From contig NZ_LJIC01000110.1 in NCBI RefSeq assembly GCF_001295845.1, positions 1-36,904 of the forward strand: a stretch of 36,904 nt of DNA, in the 5' to 3' direction. Source of the DNA: Rhodopseudomonas sp. AAP120. GTDB taxonomy: Bacteria; Pseudomonadota; Alphaproteobacteria; Rhizobiales; Xanthobacteraceae. A program made the translations under genes and the position numbers. Positions 4,861-13,219 of the stretch are shown here, in pieces; position 1 is the stretch's first letter, and every line of letters starts with the position of its first letter. The notes under the pieces were generated by a model. That model was not told the origin of the DNA, did not search any database, and worked only from the letters and a program-made list of their open reading frames with translations.

Positions 4861-5697
4861 CTAACGCCTCGCCTTTCGACCGGCGTGGCGCTCCGCCATG
4901 TATCTGCCCGGAGACGTGCCCAGCATCTTGCGGAACATGGTGACGAAGCTCGTAACGCTTTCATAACCGAGGTCGCCGGATACCTGCTGGATCGTGGCGC
5001 CATCGGCCAGCCACTGCACCGCGAGCATGACGCCGAGTTGCTGGCGCCAGCGCCCGAAGCTCATTCCGGTCTCACGGCTGATCACCCGCCCGAGCGTCCG
5101 CCCGCTGAGGCCGGCGCGCTTCGCCCAGCCCTCCAGTGAGCCGCGCTCGGCGGGCGCGGCCATCATCAGATCGGCCAAAGCGCGCAGCCGCGGATCTGAA
5201 GGCATCGGCAAATGCAGATCCTCTATCTTGGCCGCCGCGGTCTCGTCCAGCAACACCGCGATCAGCCGCGCACTCGCTCCGTCCTGATCGTACAGCAACG
5301 GCAGGCTGGCGGCGCGGAACAGCAGTTCGCGCAGCAGAGGCGTCACCGAGACCGTGCAGCAGCGTTGCGGCAGTCCCACATCGATGTCGGTGGCGACGAA
5401 CGCAGCATAACCCTCGAGCGTGCCTGTCGCCCTGATCGCGTGCATCGTGCCACCGGGTATCCAGACGGCGCTGCCCGGCGGAACGATCCACAATCCGCCT
5501 TCCACCCGGCAACTGAGCGCACCGCGCTGCACCAGCAAGATCTGCGCCTTGGCGTGGCAGTGCATGTCGATCTCGAACGAACCGATCATCGCCGACGCCA
5601 TGCCATAGGCCACGACCGGGCGCGGGACCTCGTCGGGCTCGACCCAGTCGGACGCAGTGGAGCTGTCGGTGAGAAGTGGCATGGTTCGACCTACCAT
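4861..5697 (-). CDS. AraC-family transcriptional regulator with N-terminal cupin domain
   Basis: A 278-residue DNA-binding regulator. Residues about 25-105 form a cupin-like sensor (GSFEIDMHCHAKAQILLVQRG, then IVPPGSAVWIPGGTMHAI). The last hundred or so residues are the two-helix-turn-helix AraC domain, ending in the characteristic GYESVTSFVTMFRKMLGTSPGRY. The architecture is that of the NimR-like AraC subgroup. Start codons at 5697 and 5682 are both possible; the second has a better-placed AGG. The gene is divergent from the O-methyltransferase at 5819, with a 7-bp inverted repeat in the shared 120-bp region, so control of that gene and autoregulation are the obvious inferences. The ligand is unknown. 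Confidence 0.9.
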   Translation of the reverse strand: MVGRTMPLLTDSSTASDWVEPDEVPRPVVAYGMASAMIGSFEIDMHCHAKAQILLVQRGALSCRVEGGLWIVPPGSAVWIPGGTMHAIRATGTLEGYAAFVATDIDVGLPQRCCTVSVTPLLRELLFRAASLPLLYDQDGASARLIAVLLDETAAAKIEDLHLPMPSDPRLRALADLMMAAPAERGSLEGWAKRAGLSGRTLGRVISRETGMSFGRWRQQLGVMLAVQWLADGATIQQVSGDLGYESVTSFVTMFRKMLGTSPGRYMAERHAGRKARR

Positions 5698-5702
5698 GCC
5701 GC

Positions 5703-5749
5703 TTGGCGTGAATGGATAATAATCTGTCTAGGCTTCGTAATGACGCCAA
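5703..5749. promoter_or_regulatory. Inverted half-sites in the araC-type / O-methyltransferase divergent region
   Basis: TTGGCGT (5703-5709) and ACGCCAA (5743-5749) are perfect inverted copies whose centres are 40 bp apart, close to four helical turns. They flank an A+T-rich segment. Their place between two divergent genes fits paired half-sites for the AraC-type regulator. This is inferred from arrangement only. Confidence 0.4.
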
Positions 5750-5818
5750 AGCGACCTCGCTTTAATTCCCTTGGGCAGCCGGGGCCAAAACGGTCTCGAC
5801 ATACCTAAGGTGGCTTTC

Positions 5819-6514
5819 ATGACATCGCTGAGCAGCAAGCGCGTTGCAGAGACGCTCGACAAACTCCACGCACAGGCCGAGGCCGCGGATCGCGAGTTGA
5901 TGGCCGAGATGAGGGCCCACGCCGAGACGTCCGGTGAAACGCTGAATGATCTGGCGGCCAAATTCGTCGCCGAGGAACGGCTGAACTATCGAGCGACGTA
6001 TCGGGGACACGCCGATCATTTTCTGGCGATTTCTCCGGCCTACGGCCGCTTCCTGTACGCGATCGCGCGCGCACGCAGGGCGACCCGGATCGTCGAATTC
6101 GGCACCTCGATGGGGATCTCGACGATCTACCTCGCGGCCGCGCTTCGCGACAACGGCGGCGGAAAGTTGATCGGCTCCGAGCTCGAACCCACGAAAATCG
6201 CGCGGGCGCGGGCTCACCTCGAAGCGGCGGGGCTGGCCGACCTGGTGGAGATCCGCGAGGGCGATGCGCTCGACACGCTCAAGGACGTCGGCGGCGAGGT
6301 CGATGTTCTATCGATCGATGGTGCGTTTTCGCTGTACCTGCCGGTGCTCGGGATGATCGAGCCGCGGCTGACGCCCGGCGCCGTGATCCTCGGGGAGAAC
6401 GCCTTTGCGCAGGACTATCTCGATTACGTCCGCGATCCGACCAACGGTTACTTCTCCCGGTCGCTCGACATCGACCAAGGCCGCGGTAACGAATTCACCG
6501 TGCGGGTCGGGTAA
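5819..6514 (+). CDS. Class I SAM-dependent O-methyltransferase
   Basis: The protein (231 residues) has the fold signature of the catechol/caffeoyl-CoA O-methyltransferase group. An N-terminal helical part is followed by motif I VEFGTSMGISTIYLA, an acidic loop GSELEPTKIARARAHL that would hold the SAM ribose, and DVLSIDGAFSLYLPVLGMIEPRLTPGA around the catalytic region. The family moves a methyl group from SAM to a hydroxyl; the acceptor cannot be read from sequence. The ATG at 5819 is chosen because AAGG precedes it at a good distance; the frame is open 16 codons further upstream. It is divergent from the AraC-type gene and convergent with the ABC exporter. Confidence 0.88.
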   Translation: MTSLSSKRVAETLDKLHAQAEAADRELMAEMRAHAETSGETLNDLAAKFVAEERLNYRATYRGHADHFLAISPAYGRFLYAIARARRATRIVEFGTSMGISTIYLAAALRDNGGGKLIGSELEPTKIARARAHLEAAGLADLVEIREGDALDTLKDVGGEVDVLSIDGAFSLYLPVLGMIEPRLTPGAVILGENAFAQDYLDYVRDPTNGYFSRSLDIDQGRGNEFTVRVG

Positions 6515-6555: not shown

Positions 6556-8646
6556 TCACTCGTCGTCCTCATCCTCGTCATCATCGTCGTCGTCGTCATC
6601 GTCCGCGACACGGCCGTGGTTGCTCTGGTCGTCCCACAGCTTGCGATAGACGCCGTTCTTGGCGAGCAGCTCCTTGTGCGAGCCGCGTTCAATCGCCTGG
6701 CCGCCGGAAATGACGATGATCTCGTCCATCTCGACCACCGAGGTCAGGCGGTGGGTCGAGAAGATCATGGTGCGGCCGCGGGCAAGCTTGAGCAGCGTCT
6801 TGTTGATCGCCGCCTCGGTGGTCTGGTCGAGCGCCGAGGTGGCTTCGTCGAGCAGCAGCACCGAGGGATCGCGGACGATGGCGCGGGCGATCGCCAGACG
6901 CTGGCGCTGGCCGCCGGACAGGGTGTCGCCGCGCTCGCCAACCTGGGTGTCGTATTTGTCCGGCAGGCTCATGATGTAGCGATGGATCTCGGCCTTCTTG
7001 GCGGCCTCGACCACCTCCTCGTCGGTGGCGCCCTCCTTGCCGAGCCGGATGTTTTCGCGGATCGACATGTTGAACAGCATGTTCTCCTGGAACACCACCG
7101 CCATGCTCTGGCGCAGCGACTCCAGCGTCACCTTGCGGATATCGACGCCGTCGACGCTGACGCGGCCCTCGTCGGGCTGATACAGCCGCAGAATCATGTT
7201 GAGCAGCGTGCTCTTGCCCGAGCCGCTCGGGCCGACGATGGCGATCGTCCTGCCGGCCTTCAGCTTGAGGCTGAGATTGTCGAGCACCGGCCGCTCAGCG
7301 CCCTCGTAGCCGAACGTCACACGCTCGAAGGCGATGTTGTCGGTGATGCGCGGCAGCTCGGCCGCGCCCGGCCGGTCGGCGATCGGCGTCGGCTCGTCGA
7401 GCAATTCTTCCATGTGGCGCACCGCGGCCGCAGCCTGGATCGCCACCGGGATGAACTGCATCAGATGGGCGATGTTGTACGACACCTCCCAGAATGCGCT
7501 CTCGAAGGTGACGAATGTGCCGACCGTGATCTGACCTTTGGTGGCGAGATATGCGCCGATCGCCAGCACCACCAAATGCAACAGCAGCACCGCAACGGTC
7601 ACCGAGCGCTCGACCATCGAGCGCAGGAACACCGCCTCGGCGATCTTGTTTCGCGTCGTGTTGTTGCGCAGCGTGAAGAAGCCGAACATCTTGCGCTGCA
7701 GGCTGAACGCCTTGACCACCGCTTGCGCAGCGACGTTTTCCTGCACCATGCCGAGCAGCCCGGCCTCCTGGACCTTCTGCTCGTAGTTCGCCTGCACCGC
7801 CTTCGGCGTCAGGATGCGCGGGCCGATCAGCGTGATCGGGAAGATCAGCAGCGCCACCACGGCGAGCTGCCAGTTCAGGAACAGCATCAGGATGATGCCG
7901 GCGATCAATTCGAGCAGCGGCAGCATTGCCGTATTGGCGAAGATCTCGACGACGTTCTCGAAGGCCGCCATGTCGATCGAGAACCGCGACAGCGTCTCGC
8001 CGCGCTTGGTCCGGGCAAAATAGCCGGCCGGCAGTTTCTGGACGTGGTCGAACAGCCGGGTGCGCACGTCGGTGATGACCGACGCGGCGAGCCGCGCATC
8101 CCAGCGCTCGTACCACACCGCGACGATCGAGGTGATCACGCCGGCAACGGCGAGGATCGAGAGGATCTTGTAGAGTTCCTGGAAGTCTTCCTCGCCGAGC
8201 GCATCGTCGATCAGGAACTTCAGGCTGAGCGGCATGATGACGTTGAACAGCGTCTCGACCACGACGCCGAACACCACGATCGCTACCATCTTCCGATAGT
8301 TCGGCAGGATCGGCCTGACGTGGCGCGCGATCGTCGCCAACGCGCCGGCAGCCTCGCGGGCGGTGAAGACGACGAGCTCCTCGTCGTCATCGTCATCGTC
8401 GTCTTCATCATCCTCGTCGTCATCCGCCGCCTTGGCTTTGGCTTTCGGATCCGGCGTCTTGTCCTGAACGATCTGCTTCACCGGCGGCCGTGTGCTCGGC
8501 ACCGGCGAGGCCACGGCGCCGACCGGGATGGCGAATTTCTCGTCGAGCGGCGACGCCGCTGCGCCCTCCGCGACCGGCTCCCCTGCCGGGGCGGCCGGAG
8601 GCTGATCGCCAGCATCGGCGGGCGGATTGGGTGGCTTGCGCGTCAT
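6556..8646 (-). CDS. ABC exporter, fused transmembrane and ATPase domains, with poly-acidic ends
   Basis: A 696-residue half-transporter of the MsbA/type IV exporter type, which would dimerise in the inner membrane. An N-terminal Pro/Ala-rich and acidic cytoplasmic extension precedes a six-helix domain (about 120-410). In the ATPase, Walker A GPSGSGKST is at 472-480, LSGGQ at 576-580, Walker B VLLLDE at 596-601 and the H-loop His at 632. Residues 682-696 are an uninterrupted run of Asp/Glu with nine Asp in a row, and a second run of about 16 lies near residue 80. The ATG at 8646 is preferred; a frame opening at 8736 would begin beyond a terminator-like hairpin, and neither start has a clear ribosome binding site. 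The gene follows the oxidase/methyltransferase gene and may export its product, which is inference. Confidence 0.92.
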   Translation of the reverse strand: MTRKPPNPPADAGDQPPAAPAGEPVAEGAAASPLDEKFAIPVGAVASPVPSTRPPVKQIVQDKTPDPKAKAKAADDDEDDEDDDDDDDEELVVFTAREAAGALATIARHVRPILPNYRKMVAIVVFGVVVETLFNVIMPLSLKFLIDDALGEEDFQELYKILSILAVAGVITSIVAVWYERWDARLAASVITDVRTRLFDHVQKLPAGYFARTKRGETLSRFSIDMAAFENVVEIFANTAMLPLLELIAGIILMLFLNWQLAVVALLIFPITLIGPRILTPKAVQANYEQKVQEAGLLGMVQENVAAQAVVKAFSLQRKMFGFFTLRNNTTRNKIAEAVFLRSMVERSVTVAVLLLHLVVLAIGAYLATKGQITVGTFVTFESAFWEVSYNIAHLMQFIPVAIQAAAAVRHMEELLDEPTPIADRPGAAELPRITDNIAFERVTFGYEGAERPVLDNLSLKLKAGRTIAIVGPSGSGKSTLLNMILRLYQPDEGRVSVDGVDIRKVTLESLRQSMAVVFQENMLFNMSIRENIRLGKEGATDEEVVEAAKKAEIHRYIMSLPDKYDTQVGERGDTLSGGQRQRLAIARAIVRDPSVLLLDEATSALDQTTEAAINKTLLKLARGRTMIFSTHRLTSVVEMDEIIVISGGQAIERGSHKELLAKNGVYRKLWDDQSNHGRVADDDDDDDDDEDEDDE

Positions 8647-8701
8647 GAAGCGGAACCGTTGCTGGCCGAAGGGAGACGAACTGGCTGGAAACGAAAATGA
8701 T

Positions 8702-8733
8702 CGACGCCGTGACTCGTTCGAGCCACGGCGTCG
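8702..8733 (-). terminator. Hairpin between the oxidase/methyltransferase gene and the ABC exporter gene
   Basis: GACGCCGTG (8703-8711) and CACGGCGTC (8724-8732) are perfect inverted arms, extended by one outer pair and by an inner CTC/GAG. On the minus strand the stem is followed by GATCATTTTCG, a short T-run. It lies about 45 nt beyond the FAD gene stop and would partly uncouple the exporter from it. A bare stem-loop or operator is also possible. Confidence 0.5.
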
Positions 8734-8777
8734 CAATCCTTAAGCGAGGTTGGCCGGATCGGCCAAGCCGTTCGTGC

Positions 8778-10832
8778 TCAATCTTCCTCGTCGACCTTGT
8801 CGAAGAACGAATAGCGCAGGCTGTCCGCGTCGCCGTACCACTGGCCCGGCCCCTTGCCGGCCTTCAGCGTGGCTTCCCAGAGCTGGTCGCTGCAATCCTT
8901 GCGGTGCATCGACAGGTCGAAGCCGTTGTTGAAGAACAGCTCCGACCACTCCCACCAGGTGCCGAGCTTCTTCACCGCGCGCAGCAGGTCGTAGCGATCG
9001 ACCACCTTCGGATCCATGTCGCTGGTGACCGAGCCGAACACCAGGCCGGTGCGGGTGACGCGATTAAGCTCGCGGACCGCCTTGACCACGCGCGCCTCCG
9101 GCACGTGGCACAGGCTGGTCTCGAACACGAAGTCGAACGAGCCGTCTTCGAACGGCAATTCGGCGATCGAGCCGAACTGATTGTATGGCTTCAGCGCCTC
9201 CGGGGTCTTGGCGAGGATGCCGCGATTGTTCTCGACACCGAAGGCGTCGATGCCGCGCTCCCGCAGTGCGCCGACCAGTTCCCCGCTCGCCGAGCCGGCG
9301 ACCAGCAGCTTGGCGCCCTGCGGCACGTCCCACACCATGCGGATCATCTCGAGCAGATAATCGGGGTTGGTGAACTGCTGCCAAACCTCGCGATACGGTC
9401 CCTGGTTGCGATAGTTGTCGAAATACGACGCGTCGATCTTGTCCGACATCGCCTTCTCGGCCAGCGCCCGGGCGCGGCGCAGCTTCATCGTTTCGGTGAC
9501 GATGATGTCGGTCGCGGCATCCGAAGAGTCGAGCAATCCATTCAGCGTCGAGTCGAACAGATAGTCGCCGACCACGACGAAGCCGGGATGGTTCTTGGGC
9601 TCCGGCCGGTGGTTCGTCATCACGTCGCGCACCGGCAGGCCGCCGGGGATGCAGTTGACCGACGACAGCCAGCGATGGGTCTTGCCTTCAAGGAAGTGAT
9701 CGCGCGCATCGCCGATCGCCGCCGGCAGCGACTTCAGCGCGAGATCGATCAGTTCCTTGTCGGTGAGGTTCGAGAACGCCAGCGCGTCCGAACCGGCCAC
9801 CAGGAAGTTCAGTACGCCGTATTTGCCGACGTCATGCCGCGAACCTTCGTTGTACACGCAGCAGCCGCCGAAGGCTTCCGACATGAACCAGGAGCCCGGG
9901 ATCTTGTCGCCCCAGAACGGCTTGTCGAACAGCAGCGAGATCCGCAGATAGTGCGCTGGCCGGTCGAAATAGGCGACGTGCTTGACCATCGCCTTGCGCA
10001 GCTGCTCGTCGCCCCACGCCAGCGTCGCCAGCCAGTTGTGCGGCAGGCACATCAGCACGAGATCGAAATCCCGCGTCTCCGGTCCCTTGCCGTTCATCAT
10101 GTTCAGCTCGTAGCGCCCGCTCTCGGTCTTGCCGACCTTGAGGACGCGGTGGTTGAGCTGGATCTCGGCGTCGACCTCGGAGCGCAGCCCTTCGATCAGT
10201 TGCTCGTTGCCGTTCTGGATCGAGTACAGGCCGATATAGCCGTCGATATCCATCACGAAATTCTTCAGCGCGTTGAGGCCGTTGGTGTTGTGGCTCTCGG
10301 TCGCGATGTCGGAGCGGGCCATCACCTTGAAGAACTTCTTGGCGATCGGATCGTCGACTTCCTTGTCGAGCAGCTGCTCGCAATTGATCCAGGCCCAGGG
10401 ATGCTCGTTATCGTGGGCGCCGACGCCCTCGTAGTACTCGACAGGGGTGATCTGCTCGGTGAGCTTCTTGCGAAACGCCGTGATCGCGTCGGCAGTCTTG
10501 TCGCCGTACTTCTTGCGCATCCCGGGCACGTCGTTGAGCAGTTCGCCGTCGAGCTGCACCTGTTCGGCGTCCATCGGGATGGTCTGCAGCCCGAAATGCT
10601 GGACCAGTTCGCGCAGCGGATCCGGCCCCGTCATCGAGTAGTCGTACAGCTCGGCCACACCTGCTTCGTAAAGCGCCGGAGCGCTATCGAACGTCCTGGA
10701 GACGATCTTGCCGCCGAGGCGGTCCGATGCTTCGAAAATCGTGATCCGGCACAACGGGCCGAGCTTCTTCTTCAGGTACCAGGCGCTCATCAGGCCGCCC
10801 GGGCCGCCACCAACGATTGCAAGGTCAAACAT
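8778..10832 (-). CDS. FAD-dependent amine-oxidase-like protein fused to a SAM methyltransferase
   Basis: A 684-residue two-domain enzyme. Residues 1 to about 460 are a flavin amine-oxidase/desaturase-type domain: GGGPGG at 8-13 binds the FAD diphosphate, Glu34 in FEASDRLGGK would hold the ribose, and FVVVGDYLFDSTLNGLLDSS is the C-terminal FAD contact. Residues from about 506 are a class I methyltransferase of the Methyltransf_11 type, with a degenerate motif I (LLVAGSASGELV) and a clear AELPFEDGSFDFVFETSLCHVPEA. The substrate is unknown. It has its own promoter (10913-10941) overlapped by an inverted repeat. It sits between the LuxI/FeeM-like gene and the exporter, all on one strand, which suggests it tailors a product made or exported by them. 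Confidence 0.85.
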   Translation of the reverse strand: MFDLAIVGGGPGGLMSAWYLKKKLGPLCRITIFEASDRLGGKIVSRTFDSAPALYEAGVAELYDYSMTGPDPLRELVQHFGLQTIPMDAEQVQLDGELLNDVPGMRKKYGDKTADAITAFRKKLTEQITPVEYYEGVGAHDNEHPWAWINCEQLLDKEVDDPIAKKFFKVMARSDIATESHNTNGLNALKNFVMDIDGYIGLYSIQNGNEQLIEGLRSEVDAEIQLNHRVLKVGKTESGRYELNMMNGKGPETRDFDLVLMCLPHNWLATLAWGDEQLRKAMVKHVAYFDRPAHYLRISLLFDKPFWGDKIPGSWFMSEAFGGCCVYNEGSRHDVGKYGVLNFLVAGSDALAFSNLTDKELIDLALKSLPAAIGDARDHFLEGKTHRWLSSVNCIPGGLPVRDVMTNHRPEPKNHPGFVVVGDYLFDSTLNGLLDSSDAATDIIVTETMKLRRARALAEKAMSDKIDASYFDNYRNQGPYREVWQQFTNPDYLLEMIRMVWDVPQGAKLLVAGSASGELVGALRERGIDAFGVENNRGILAKTPEALKPYNQFGSIAELPFEDGSFDFVFETSLCHVPEARVVKAVRELNRVTRTGLVFGSVTSDMDPKVVDRYDLLRAVKKLGTWWEWSELFFNNGFDLSMHRKDCSDQLWEATLKAGKGPGQWYGDADSLRYSFFDKVDEED

Positions 10833-10912
10833 CTCGGTCTTTCAACGCATCGCGCAGGCCGTTTGCCGCGCCGCCAAACCCGATCCGCACCACCGGCGAT
10901 CGAGTGGATTCG

Positions 10913-10941
10913 ATTCTCTGTGAAAATCAGCTTGGGTTCAA
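10913..10941 (-). promoter_or_regulatory. Probable promoter of the oxidase/methyltransferase gene
   Basis: On the minus strand the -35 is TTGAAC (10941-10936), then 17 nt, then -10 GAGAAT (10918-10913). The start of transcription would lie about 75 nt before the ATG at 10832. One arm of the inverted repeat described separately falls inside the spacer, so this promoter looks regulated. Confidence 0.5.
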
Positions 10942-10959
10942 TGGCTTAAGGCTGATTTT
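10923..10959. promoter_or_regulatory. Inverted repeat straddling the -35 of the oxidase/methyltransferase promoter
   Basis: AAAATCAGC (10923-10931) and GCTGATTTT (10951-10959) are perfect 9-bp inverted arms 19 bp apart. One arm lies in the promoter spacer and the other just upstream of the -35, as expected for a dimeric regulator. The LuxR-type protein two genes upstream is the nearest candidate, but nothing in the sequence proves it. Confidence 0.5.
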
Positions 10960-11077
10960 GACGTCGAACCGGCGCCCCTGCCGGAAGGATCGCGTCGTTC
11001 ATCAACAGGTAGGCGCTTTTCACCTGAAGGAAAGATGAACGGAGCGTGAGAACGGGCTTAAAACCCTGTCCTGCCAC

Positions 11078-11102
11078 AAAAAACGCCAGCCGCGCGAGCC
11101 GG
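11078..11102 (-). terminator. Likely intrinsic terminator of the LuxI/FeeM-like gene
   Basis: On the minus strand a G+C-rich stem (six pairs including two G-U, loop CGCGC, 11102-11086) is followed two bases later by six T residues (11083-11078). It lies 80 nt past the stop at 11182 and before the separate promoter of the next gene. The stem is modest, so termination may be incomplete. Confidence 0.5.
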
Positions 11103-11181
11103 TCAGAGATCTTTTGAGACGATGCGGCGGGGTCGATGCCCGTGCAGTCTCGTCCGCGGGAGTGAGGTCTGCCCCTCCCCC

Positions 11182-11895
11182 CTAGCGACGCCCCCCGTTG
11201 CGGCGTCTGAAAAAATCGTCGGCCACGCTGACGAGAGGGGAGCCGGCGTCTCGCAGACGGTCCAGGTCCAGCCGTTCGTGCCGGAGCACGTGCATGGTCC
11301 CGGCCTCCAGGTCGACGAAGGTTCGGCCGATCCATTGCCAGCCGCGCGCGGCAAACGTCGGGACCATTCGCGTCGGCACCGCCATGAAGCTCTGAACGGC
11401 CCCCGCCAGGCAGGCGCTTCGATAGGCCTGCAGCAGCATCGGCACGATCAAGGCGTGAGCTTGCGGATCGGGCAGCACCGCAAAGCGCGACATCACGATC
11501 GCCGCGCCGGAATCTTCAGGCTTGGCAACCTCGAGCAGCAAACCGAGATGCGGGTCGTTGATCGCGTCCGCCGCCCGGGTCAGCCGGATCGTGCCGACGG
11601 CCTCGCCGCGGTACTCCGCGACGAAGACCAGACTGCAGCGATCGACCTGCTCGATCAGCGCCGGACTGCCGAACTCGCCTTCCCTCGAGGTGGCACGTCC
11701 GTCGCGAGACAGCGCGTGACGCAGACGCCCGACCCGCGAAAGGTCCGCCGTCGAGCGAACCACATGGATCGCCGGATCGGTCGAACCGATCGCTGCATCC
11801 GGCCATCCTGAGAGAGCAAGATCCGGGTCCGTTGTCCGGGCATGGACAACAGACTTGGACCTGCTGACAAAATCGGAGGCTTGCATGCTTGGCAT
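11182..11895 (-). CDS. LuxI/FeeM-like acyltransferase (putative N-acyl amino acid or acyl-signal synthase)
   Basis: A 237-residue protein with GNAT-fold landmarks of the autoinducer-synthase and N-acyl amino acid synthase group. These are GRLRHAL at 56-62, an acidic segment REGEF at 71-75, VGTIRLT at 100-106 and IVMSRFAVLPD at 133-143, where SRFAV is the best-conserved LuxI/FeeM motif. A Cys/Ala helix and a beta-rich C-terminus follow. The family transfers a fatty acyl chain from acyl-ACP to homoserine lactone precursors or an amino acid such as tyrosine. The canonical LuxI Glu before SRFAV is Met here, so a classic acyl-homoserine-lactone product is unlikely. The start may be ATG 11895 or 11886. 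It lies 97 nt after a LuxR-type regulator on the same strand, with a palindrome in the gap. No acyl carrier protein is nearby. A plain acetyltransferase is the alternative. Confidence 0.7.
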   Translation of the reverse strand: MPSMQASDFVSRSKSVVHARTTDPDLALSGWPDAAIGSTDPAIHVVRSTADLSRVGRLRHALSRDGRATSREGEFGSPALIEQVDRCSLVFVAEYRGEAVGTIRLTRAADAINDPHLGLLLEVAKPEDSGAAIVMSRFAVLPDPQAHALIVPMLLQAYRSACLAGAVQSFMAVPTRMVPTFAARGWQWIGRTFVDLEAGTMHVLRHERLDLDRLRDAGSPLVSVADDFFRRRNGGRR

Positions 11896-11944
11896 CCGCG
11901 CTGCTTGACCGAAGTAATTTGCAGTTGCAGCGGCGGCGTGACAT

Positions 11945-11969
11945 CACCCAAATGGGTGCCCTCTGGGCA
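11945..11969. promoter_or_regulatory. Two abutting palindromes upstream of the LuxI/FeeM-like gene
   Basis: CACCC-AAAT-GGGTG (11945-11958) is immediately followed, with a two-base overlap, by TGCCC-TCT-GGGCA (11957-11969). They lie about 50-75 bp before the start of the acyltransferase gene, the place of a lux-box-like operator, and within 50 bp of the end of the regulator gene. As RNA they could form alternative hairpins, but no T-run follows. Confidence 0.4.
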
Positions 11970-11992
11970 ATTCGGCAGGGTCCGATCAGCAG

Positions 11993-13072
11993 TCAGCCGA
12001 ACGGCAGCTGGCGCCCTGCCAGCAGGCTGACCAGTTCCTGCTGCCGCGACAGGCCGGTCTTCGCCATCACCGCCTTCAATTGCGCCCGCACGGTTTCGCG
12101 GGAAACGCCTTGGGCCGCGGCGATGTCCTCGACCGAGCGGGCTTCTCCGATGCTGCGCGCCACCTTGGCCTCGGCGGGCGTCAGGTCGAACAGCCCCTGG
12201 ATGACTTCGGCGCTGGGCACCAGCGCGCGGTCGACCGGCGTCACGACCAGCAACAATCGGCCGACCGAAAATACATCATTGGCGACGCCGGCTATTGGCA
12301 GCAAATGCACGATCATCGCGGTCCGTCCGATCGCCGCCGCGATGGGTATCGATCGTCCACCGGCGACGGGCATCGCCTGGTTGCTGACGACGGCCTCGAA
12401 CAAGCCATCGGCGAGCGGATCGGATAGCACCAGCCGATGTCGTCGATCCTGCAATGTGGTTGGGACCAGCGCATCCAAAAGCGCGTTACTGGCGACCAAG
12501 CGACCACGACGATCGAGCACGCCGCCGGGTAGTCCCAGCGCCAGAAGCGTATCGGCCATCGATCTCGCGCGCTCCAGCCCGAGCCGCGCGGCCAGCATCG
12601 CGCCGCGGGCGAGGTGCGGCCGGATCCGATCGAACCCGTGAACGACCTCGAGGGGGACCGGCCCTTTGGCAAATGCCCGTTCGAACGAGAAGACCATCGA
12701 GTCCCCGGACGGCGTGTCGAGCATCGTGCCGACGGCCCAGCCGATCCCCCGGCTTCGGTAGAACGCGTAGACCGGATCGCGGTCCAATTCCTCGGCCGTG
12801 AAGAAATCGCTGTCGCGCACAAAACCCGGATGATTGGCGGCCGACAACCGGACTGGACGCGGATTGATCGCCGCCCATCCGTCACGCAGGAACTCGATGA
12901 ACGTCTCCCGCAGATCCGACGACGTGGTCCAGGACATGTCTTCCCGGGCGAACGTGAACAACACCGCACCGTCGCCGGACACCTCCCGCGACATCGATCC
13001 GAGTACGTCCGGCCACTTCTCTGGGACGACGGCAGCTTCGTAAATGCCGTCGATATGCTGCAGGAGATCCAA
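11993..13072 (-). CDS. LuxR-type HTH transcriptional regulator
   Basis: A 359-residue regulator. The last 65 or so residues are a LuxR/GerE helix-turn-helix: LTPAEAKVARSIGEARSVED, then GVSRETVRAQLKAVMAKTG, where the second part is the recognition helix. The N-terminal 290 residues are a sensor region, with a PAS-like fold suggested around GGVLDRRGRLVASNALLDAL. The classical acyl-homoserine-lactone-binding domain of LuxR is not seen. The start is TTG at 13072 with GGAG about 10 bases before it; no ATG in frame gives a better site. It is on the same strand as the LuxI/FeeM-like gene, 97 nt upstream, which suggests a sensor-synthase pair. It is separated from rpoC by a strong bidirectional terminator. 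The ligand is unknown. Confidence 0.88.
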   Translation of the reverse strand: MDLLQHIDGIYEAAVVPEKWPDVLGSMSREVSGDGAVLFTFAREDMSWTTSSDLRETFIEFLRDGWAAINPRPVRLSAANHPGFVRDSDFFTAEELDRDPVYAFYRSRGIGWAVGTMLDTPSGDSMVFSFERAFAKGPVPLEVVHGFDRIRPHLARGAMLAARLGLERARSMADTLLALGLPGGVLDRRGRLVASNALLDALVPTTLQDRRHRLVLSDPLADGLFEAVVSNQAMPVAGGRSIPIAAAIGRTAMIVHLLPIAGVANDVFSVGRLLLVVTPVDRALVPSAEVIQGLFDLTPAEAKVARSIGEARSVEDIAAAQGVSRETVRAQLKAVMAKTGLSRQQELVSLLAGRQLPFG

Positions 13073-13188: not shown

Positions 13189-13219
13189 AAAAAAGGCCGG
13201 GAGTGATCCCGGCCTTTTT
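13189..13219. terminator. Strong bidirectional intrinsic terminator after rpoC
   Basis: A perfect 8-bp stem GGCCGGGA / TCCCGGCC (13195-13202 and 13207-13214) with a GTGA loop is flanked by six A residues on the left and five T on the right. On the minus strand it ends the rplJL-rpoBC transcript 24 nt after the rpoC stop. It would also stop plus-strand transcription. Confidence 0.93.

What the first reader, a model, noticed from the sequence alone, without database searches (positions are those of the whole stretch)
6556..13072. Possible undescribed acyl-signal or lipid-metabolite locus inserted between rpoC and rpsL
Four minus-strand genes lie in order: a LuxR-type regulator without the usual homoserine-lactone-binding domain, a LuxI/FeeM-like acyltransferase, an amine-oxidase/methyltransferase fusion and an ABC exporter. 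Regulator, synthase, tailoring enzyme and exporter are the minimum parts of a signalling or small-metabolite system. A methyltransferase with its own AraC regulator lies next to it. Seen: the domains and order. Known: FeeM makes N-acyl amino acids and LuxI makes acyl-homoserine lactones. Inferred: that these genes act together.
Basis: partly seen in the sequence, partly recalled or inferred. Interest (0 to 1): 0.85.

Follow-up and report, generated by a model that had tools for sequence, protein, structure and literature searches.

The report
LuxR regulator with FeeM-like synthase
Beside the RNA polymerase genes of some Rhodopseudomonas bacteria sits a small, fast-changing two-gene unit that looks like a chemical signalling switch: a quorum-sensing-type regulator, a palindromic DNA site and an enzyme that probably joins a fatty acid to a small molecule.

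Summary
The gene order is confirmed; the grouping is not. Oxidase/methyltransferase (AOMT) and ABC exporter are core: all 16 searched genus genomes keep rpoC, AOMT, ABC. Only regulator (REG) and acyltransferase (SYN) form a unit, in 6 of 16. REG is not without a signal domain: its predicted N-terminal fold matches acyl-homoserine-lactone receptors best. SYN's model matches AHL synthases first, with FeeM and ordinary GNATs close behind. New here: a lux-box-like palindrome, TCACCC-N4-GGGTGA (11 or 12 of 12 positions), before 7 of 7 SYN genes, 56-60 nt from the start codon (window: if its second ATG is used). The box also lies beside REG in 26 of 75 loci of other genera (26 sites in 63 kb; 1 in the other 973 kb) and twice beside a SYN on a Rhizobium plasmid. 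REG and SYN alleles are much older than their flanks (dS 1.57 and 1.17 against 0.37), and their trees conflict. Best reading: a LuxR/LuxI-type regulator-synthase switch with a FeeM-like synthase, polymorphic at a fixed site. Substrate, product and autoinduction are inferred. Three of seven SYN proteins lack a presumed core residue; 49 of 75 REG loci have no box; some copies may be decaying.

The parts
11993..13072 (-). REG: LuxR-family regulator, 359 aa (TTG start); N-terminal domain with AHL-receptor-like predicted fold, middle domain (PAS-like, inferred), C-terminal LuxR-type HTH
   Evidence: GerE 19.8 bits, below the 23.5 cut-off, in the window protein, matched in 35 of 47 relatives at E<=1; AlphaFold2 pLDDT 83.5; Foldseek best hits SdiA, TraR, CepR2, LasR
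11944..11959 (.). Box: lux-box-like palindrome, minus strand GCACCCATTTGGGTGA, 11 of 12 matches to TCACCC-N4-GGGTGA
11182..11895 (-). SYN: acyltransferase of the LuxI/FeeM superfamily; the start is probably the second ATG, at 11886, which aligns with the relatives' starts
13190..13219 (-). Hairpin followed by T run behind rpoC, upstream border of the REG-SYN cassette
   Evidence: palindrome listed in all six cassette genomes
11021..11040 (-). Conserved element GTTCATCTTTCCTTCAGGTG about 200 bp before AOMT; downstream border of the cassette, present with and without it
   Evidence: core found in 15 of 16 genus genomes, the other is N-masked there
8778..10832 (-). AOMT: amine-oxidase/methyltransferase fusion; neighbour, judged not part of the unit
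6556..8736 (-). ABC exporter; neighbour, judged not part of the unit

Best explanation
REG and SYN form a LuxR/LuxI-type regulator-synthase switch with a non-standard, FeeM-like synthase. Shown by computation: REG is a LuxR-family protein whose predicted N-terminal domain resembles acyl-homoserine-lactone receptors; a palindromic box (TCACCC-N4-GGGTGA) lies at a near-constant distance before each of 7 SYN genes; the same box accompanies REG in other genera in front of other genes. Inferred: REG binds the box and controls SYN; SYN joins an acyl chain (from acyl-ACP or acyl-CoA) to an amine, more likely an amino acid or similar amine than S-adenosylmethionine; the product or a derivative binds REG, closing a positive loop. 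The pair is an exchangeable cassette at a fixed site: alleles differ strongly in sensor domain and synthase but keep the DNA-binding domain and the box, as in polymorphic signal ('pherotype') loci. AOMT and the ABC exporter are an independent conserved pair next door; no export role for the SYN product is shown.
For: REG and SYN present together in 6 of 16 genus genomes, both absent from the locus in the other 10. Box with >=11 of 12 before 7 of 7 SYN genes; in the same 16 regions (323,365 bp) only 2 further sites reach that score. Box to start codon 56-60 nt in 6 copies, 48 or 57 in the window according to the start used. Test outside the discovery set: 26 sites within 400 bp of REG in 75 loci of other genera (63,083 bp) against 1 in 973,373 bp elsewhere. 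Plasmid NZ_CP121657.1, found by SYN alone, has REG-family genes on both sides and two 11/12 boxes in the REG-SYN gap. Folds. Old, recombining alleles between younger flanks. Sensor domains 36-47% and HTH 73-82% identical between allele types.
Against: 49 of 75 other REG loci have no box within 400 bp at this threshold; most REG loci have no SYN (5 of 80 loci score with the SYN profile, all Rhodopseudomonas). G027 and G749 have REG beside SYN without a box. REG and SYN trees conflict, so receptor and synthase do not strictly co-evolve. R137, equivalent to a LuxI core residue by the alignment, is missing in 3 of 7 SYN, and G181 keeps only 1 of the 5 residues checked. The window SYN is under the FeeM cut-off. 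Outside the locus, exact boxes are no commoner in genomes with the cassette (7 in 6) than without it (11 in 10). Ligand, substrate and product are untested.
Confidence: 0.5

Rival explanations
1. REG is a LuxR solo that senses some other ligand and switches on whatever lies behind its box; SYN is one of several interchangeable outputs and makes an acyl-amino-acid lipid or surfactant that is not REG's ligand.
For: REG mostly occurs without SYN; in 25 of 75 other loci it sits as rpoC-REG-AOMT without SYN, with the box before REG itself in 17 of those 25; in 9 loci the box lies behind REG, 8 of them in front of a 67-residue protein. REG and SYN trees conflict.
Against: SYN and REG are neighbours in four independent settings (Rhodopseudomonas, G027, G749, Rhizobium plasmid), and the REG N-terminal fold is of the AHL-receptor type.
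Confidence: 0.27
2. SYN is a true AHL synthase (LuxI) with diverged sequence.
For: Best structural match is the AHL synthase MesI; hhalign to the genus LuxI set is better (probability 30) than to the genus FeeM set (5.8).
Against: No PF00765 hit for the window SYN or any SYN place, whereas the FeeM model passes its cut-off for G199 (both) and G202. The Trp of LuxI's substrate region (role recalled) is not kept in the aligned SYN. Both hhalign scores are weak.
Confidence: 0.08
3. SYN is decaying and has no present function in many strains.
For: pN/pS 0.45 and 0.48 in the two closest pairs; core residues lost in 3 of 7 and an internal deletion in G028; no FeeM hit in G181 and G028.
Against: 7 of 7 copies have open frames of 210-274 codons; third positions differ about twice as often as first and second in the closest pairs; box and spacing are kept in 7 of 7; the window, G202 and both G199 copies keep the residues checked (position 82 is Asp in G202).
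Confidence: 0.1
4. One reading: regulator, synthase, oxidase/methyltransferase and exporter are one metabolite operon.
For: Same strand and adjacency; in 25 of 75 other loci REG stands beside AOMT and ABC, so REG might also act on them.
Against: AOMT and ABC stay when REG and SYN are absent (10 of 16); own conserved upstream element; G027, G749 and the plasmid have REG-SYN without AOMT in the DNA examined (AOMT was searched only in G027).
Confidence: 0.05

Closest known systems
LuxR/LuxI acyl-homoserine-lactone quorum sensing (RpaR/RpaI, BjaI; recalled, with solved structures MesI 6wns, BjaI 5w8g, RpaI 6wn0)
   Same: LuxR-type regulator beside a LuxI-superfamily acyltransferase; AHL-receptor-like fold; palindromic operator before the synthase gene
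   Different: No PF00765 or PF03472 match; synthase nearer FeeM by Pfam; extra middle domain in the regulator; different operator letters from the lux box (recalled)
FeeM, N-acyl amino acid synthase (2g0b; PF21926)
   Same: Only Pfam hit of the window SYN; close relatives pass the cut-off; same superfamily fold
   Different: Window copy below the cut-off; every one of 16 genus genomes has a separate, strong FeeM (148-172 bits) elsewhere; here it sits in a LuxR-type arrangement
LuxR solos
   Same: REG without a synthase in most loci seen
   Different: Here paired with an acyltransferase and a shared box
Polymorphic signal loci such as agr or comQXPA pherotypes (recalled)
   Same: Fixed site, conserved flanks, divergent sensor and synthase, conserved DNA-binding part
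   Different: Acyl chemistry inferred instead of peptides; REG and SYN appear to reassort

Membership tests
FeeM family (PF21926) | Pfam gathering score (27 bits) | tested here: not met
   Window SYN 21.3 bits; met by G199 SYN1 43.1 and SYN2 30.8 and G202 31.6; G067 14.3, G181 and G028 no hit
FeeM family (PF21926) | Fold of 2g0b | tested here: met
   Foldseek E 1.7e-6 to 5.7e-6, TM by target 0.60-0.69; ordinary GNATs score alike, so not specific
FeeM family (PF21926) | Makes N-acyl amino acids | not testable with these tools
   Needs LC-MS
LuxI AHL synthase (PF00765) | Sequence match to the family | tested here: not met
   No SYN place among the PF00765 matches of 16 genomes
LuxI AHL synthase (PF00765) | Fold of AHL synthases | tested here: met
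   Best hit MesI, E 1.1e-7, TM by target 0.64; GNAT SACOL1063 second, E 2.5e-7
LuxI AHL synthase (PF00765) | Conserved Arg/Asp/Arg core residues | tested here: inconclusive
   Window keeps R59, E82, D85, R104, R137; equivalence rests on a weak hhalign alignment; 3 of 7 SYN lack some
LuxR-type AHL receptor | LuxR-type HTH | tested here: met
   GerE in 35 of 47 relatives at E<=1; window 19.8 bits, below the 23.5 cut-off
LuxR-type AHL receptor | Autoinducer-binding domain | tested here: inconclusive
   Predicted fold matches SdiA, TraR, CepR2 (target TM 0.63-0.66 for CepR2 domain chains), LasR; no PF03472 by sequence
LuxR/LuxI-type circuit | Palindromic operator before the synthase gene | tested here: met
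   7 of 7 SYN, two on the Rhizobium plasmid, one in G358; none in G027 and G749
LuxR/LuxI-type circuit | Synthase product is the regulator's ligand | not testable with these tools
   Needs a reporter and extract experiment

The most novel reading that the evidence does not exclude
An undescribed class of acyl-signal system in Hyphomicrobiales: LuxR-family receptors with their own operator (TCACCC-N4-GGGTGA) paired with FeeM-like synthases that make a non-AHL signal, in some lineages tailored by an overlapping haem-oxygenase-like iron enzyme, and kept in Rhodopseudomonas as an allelic 'pherotype' cassette exchanged by recombination between rpoC and a core gene.
Probability: 0.3. Interest if true: 0.87.

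Novelty: new variant of a known kind. Interest (0 to 1): 0.7.

Why it matters
FeeM-type synthases are structural cousins of AHL synthases, but in the open-access paper searches made here (listings, plus passages of three papers) I saw no report of one in a LuxR-type regulatory loop. This locus offers a small, testable candidate (two genes and one operator). The predicted operator makes REG targets in Bradyrhizobium and Rhizobium searchable, and the diverged alleles are a natural set for asking how signal specificity changes.

Tried and rejected
Four-gene operon: rejected. A terminator behind SYN (11086-11102) as border evidence: dropped, since the scan found 1 terminator-like site against a shuffle mean of 2.7 and the fold z-score is 0.14. 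Box regulon elsewhere in the genome: no support. Own genome has 15 places at <=1 mismatch against 3 for the reversed-pattern control; the 16 genus genomes have 22 exact sites against 0 for that control, but outside the cassette locus there are 7 in the 6 cassette genomes and 11 in the 10 without; these places were not examined gene by gene. Profile search of SYN against solved structures gave no meaningful hit. hhalign of SYN with genus FeeM and LuxI sets is weak (one FeeM row, L173, was a 41-residue fragment). AOMT against solved structures: the 8 listed are protoporphyrinogen oxidase and amine/amino-acid oxidase chains. SYN alone in genome contigs found nothing. Wider SYN searches: 6 of 198 family genomes; 12 of 391 with the alignment (only 7 candidates per genome scored); 11 of 397 of the order (at most 6 candidates scored), own included each time. 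Of the 6 non-genus genomes, G027 has a strong REG beside SYN and G358 a short LuxR-type gene (46 bits to REG); the other 4 have no REG in the DNA examined. Of the 10 non-own genomes only G749 has one; the other 9 have longer frames (360-454 aa) and no box. The SYN tree with G027 had an unreliable long branch and was rebuilt without it. In one search the 5 Rhodopseudomonas loci were left out (75 of 80 used); the 80 were the best of 145 by REG similarity and many are close relatives, so sites are not independent events. The clades tested were chosen after seeing the trees.
Full report
What is there. The window is contig C14 of a 6.16-Mb genome in 228 contigs. On the minus strand the order is rpoB, rpoC, REG, SYN, AOMT, ABC, then (after a methyltransferase on the plus strand and an AraC regulator) rpsL, rpsG, fusA. 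SYN's only Pfam hit is FeeM at 21.3 bits, below the cut-off of 27.

Which genes belong together. The genus search covers 16 genomes, own included. AOMT is in 16 of 16, at 81-95% identity in the other 15, and in all 16 regions rpoC, AOMT and ABC follow one another. SYN is in 6 of 16, in 7 copies. REG lies at the locus in the same 6 and in none of the other 10. The rpoC-AOMT distance is 294-346 bp without the pair and 2388-4065 bp with it. The core of an element about 200 bp before AOMT, GTTCATCTT-CCTTCAGGTG, is found in 15 of 16 genomes in both states; the sixteenth is N-masked there. So REG-SYN is a two-gene cassette between the rpoC hairpin and the AOMT upstream region. The AraC/methyltransferase pair is in 2 of 16 regions.

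Outside the genus. A scan with the REG alignment gave 145 loci; the best 80 were kept. Of the 75 that are not Rhodopseudomonas, 25 show rpoC-REG-AOMT; the SYN profile scores only in the 5 Rhodopseudomonas loci of the 80. REG and SYN are neighbours in G027, between rpoC and rpsL and without AOMT, and divergent neighbours in G749. On Rhizobium sp. CB3171 plasmid NZ_CP121657.1 a SYN relative (46% identity over 62% of the G199 copy) and a gene annotated as iron-containing redox enzyme overlap by 32 bases and lie between two REG-family genes (122 and 299 bits). In G358 a short LuxR-type gene, a box and SYN are followed by another Haem_oxygenas_2 protein overlapping by 4 bases. In G199 an ORF that overlaps the first SYN as ATGA, without a Pfam match but with a hit to the haem-oxygenase-like structure 3dde at E 2.1e-5, stands before the second SYN. 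The window has no such gene.

The box. Between REG and SYN there is a palindrome: G067 TCACATCACCCATTTGGGTGATGTGA, G181 and G028 TCACCCGATCGGGTGA, window GCACCCATTTGGGTGA. Scored against TCACCC-N4-GGGTGA, 7 of 7 SYN genes have a site with 11 or 12 of 12 matches, one for each SYN of G199; the same 16 regions (323,365 bp) hold 2 further sites of that score. The distance to the start codon is 56-60 nt in six copies and 48 in the window, or 57 if the window's second ATG is used, the one that aligns with the relatives' starts. Since the motif was read off these loci, the fair test is elsewhere. In the 75 other loci, 26 sites lie within 400 bp of REG (63,083 bp) and 1 in the other 973,373 bp; 49 of the 75 have none. 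Of the 26, 17 precede REG, all in rpoC-REG-AOMT loci, and 9 follow it; in 8 of those 9 the box stands before a conserved 67-residue protein, at 63-65 nt in 7 of them and 108 in one (distances from the coordinates). The Rhizobium plasmid has two 11/12 sites between a REG-family gene and SYN. G027 and G749 have none. Elsewhere in the genomes the motif gives no sign of a regulon tied to the cassette (figures under Tried and rejected).

Structures. The SYN model (7 sequences, mean pLDDT 78.0) matches AHL synthase MesI best; TofI, BjaI, RpaI and FeeM follow, with ordinary GNATs among them from rank 2. The REG model (47 sequences, mean pLDDT 83.5) matches SdiA, TraR, CepR2, LasR and RhlR; full-length TM by query stays at or below 0.35, and the CepR2 ligand-domain chains reach target TM 0.63-0.66. 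Both are predictions. By the alignment to genus LuxI proteins (weak) the window SYN keeps R59, E82, D85, R104 and R137. R104 is kept in 7 of 7, R137 in 4 of 7, and G181 keeps only R104. The genomes also have true LuxI genes elsewhere (over the cut-off in 14 of 16, own included) and a strong FeeM elsewhere in 16 of 16.

Evolution. Between window and G067 dS is 0.37 in AOMT, 1.57 in REG and 1.17 in SYN. REG falls into three types: window/G202, grouping with Afipia; G067/G199; G181/G028, the last two grouping with Bradyrhizobium. One Rhodopseudomonas REG clade is rejected (p-AU 6.7e-85). AOMT groups window with G067, then G199. SYN groups window with G067 (100/98); REG groups window with G202 (100/100). 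Window+G202 is rejected for SYN (p-AU 0.0026) and window+G067 for REG (3.3e-5). Between REG types the sensor region shares 36-47%, the middle 46-62%, the HTH 73-82%; HTH regions are commonly better conserved, so this is only suggestive. SYN changes fast (pN/pS 0.45 and 0.48 in the two closest pairs) but third positions differ about twice as often as the others, as in a translated gene.

Reading. The anatomy is that of a LuxR/LuxI regulator-synthase switch with a FeeM-like synthase. That REG acts on SYN through the box is the best-supported inference. That the SYN product is REG's ligand is likely but untested; the conflict of trees and REG's frequent life without SYN count against it. Oxidase and exporter should not be counted as parts.

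Literature. Paper searches, open-access PMC only: searches found 0 papers; some searches gave listings (61 listed 20 of 243). Passages seen: PMC10134790 on LuxR solos (no FeeM in its main text), PMC9654057 (FeeM resembles AHL synthases in structure but not in sequence; [quoted passage not shown]). None of the listings or passages describes this pair or box. Statements about agr, comQXPA, lux boxes and LuxI residue roles are recalled.

Noticed in passing
L055 (G199) 5001-5729; L163 (G358) 10292-11020; L259 (Rhizobium plasmid) 5587-6315: A haem-oxygenase-like protein overlaps the SYN gene in three separate settings (PF14518 in two, structure hit 3dde in the G199 one): a possible tailoring enzyme for the acyl product.
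   Followed up: partly
L088 1504-7120: Five REG-family genes in tandem between rpoC and rpsL in a metagenome-assembled Pseudomonadota contig.
   Followed up: no
L091 8237-8437 and seven more loci (L097, L102, L105, L106, L107, L114, L116): A conserved protein of about 67 residues of unknown function directly behind a REG gene and a box.
   Followed up: partly
window 6556-8736 and 8778-10832: AOMT-ABC: a flavin amine-oxidase/methyltransferase fusion with an MsbA-like exporter, behind rpoC in 16 of 16 genus genomes and in 25 of 75 other REG loci; function unknown.
   Followed up: partly
G000:C115:40508-40984 (L181): A strong FeeM-family protein (153.5 bits) outside the window, with a counterpart in 16 of 16 genus genomes.
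   Followed up: no
window 4861-6514: Divergent AraC regulator and methyltransferase, found at this place in one other genus genome (G181/L056, 85% and 79%).
   Followed up: no
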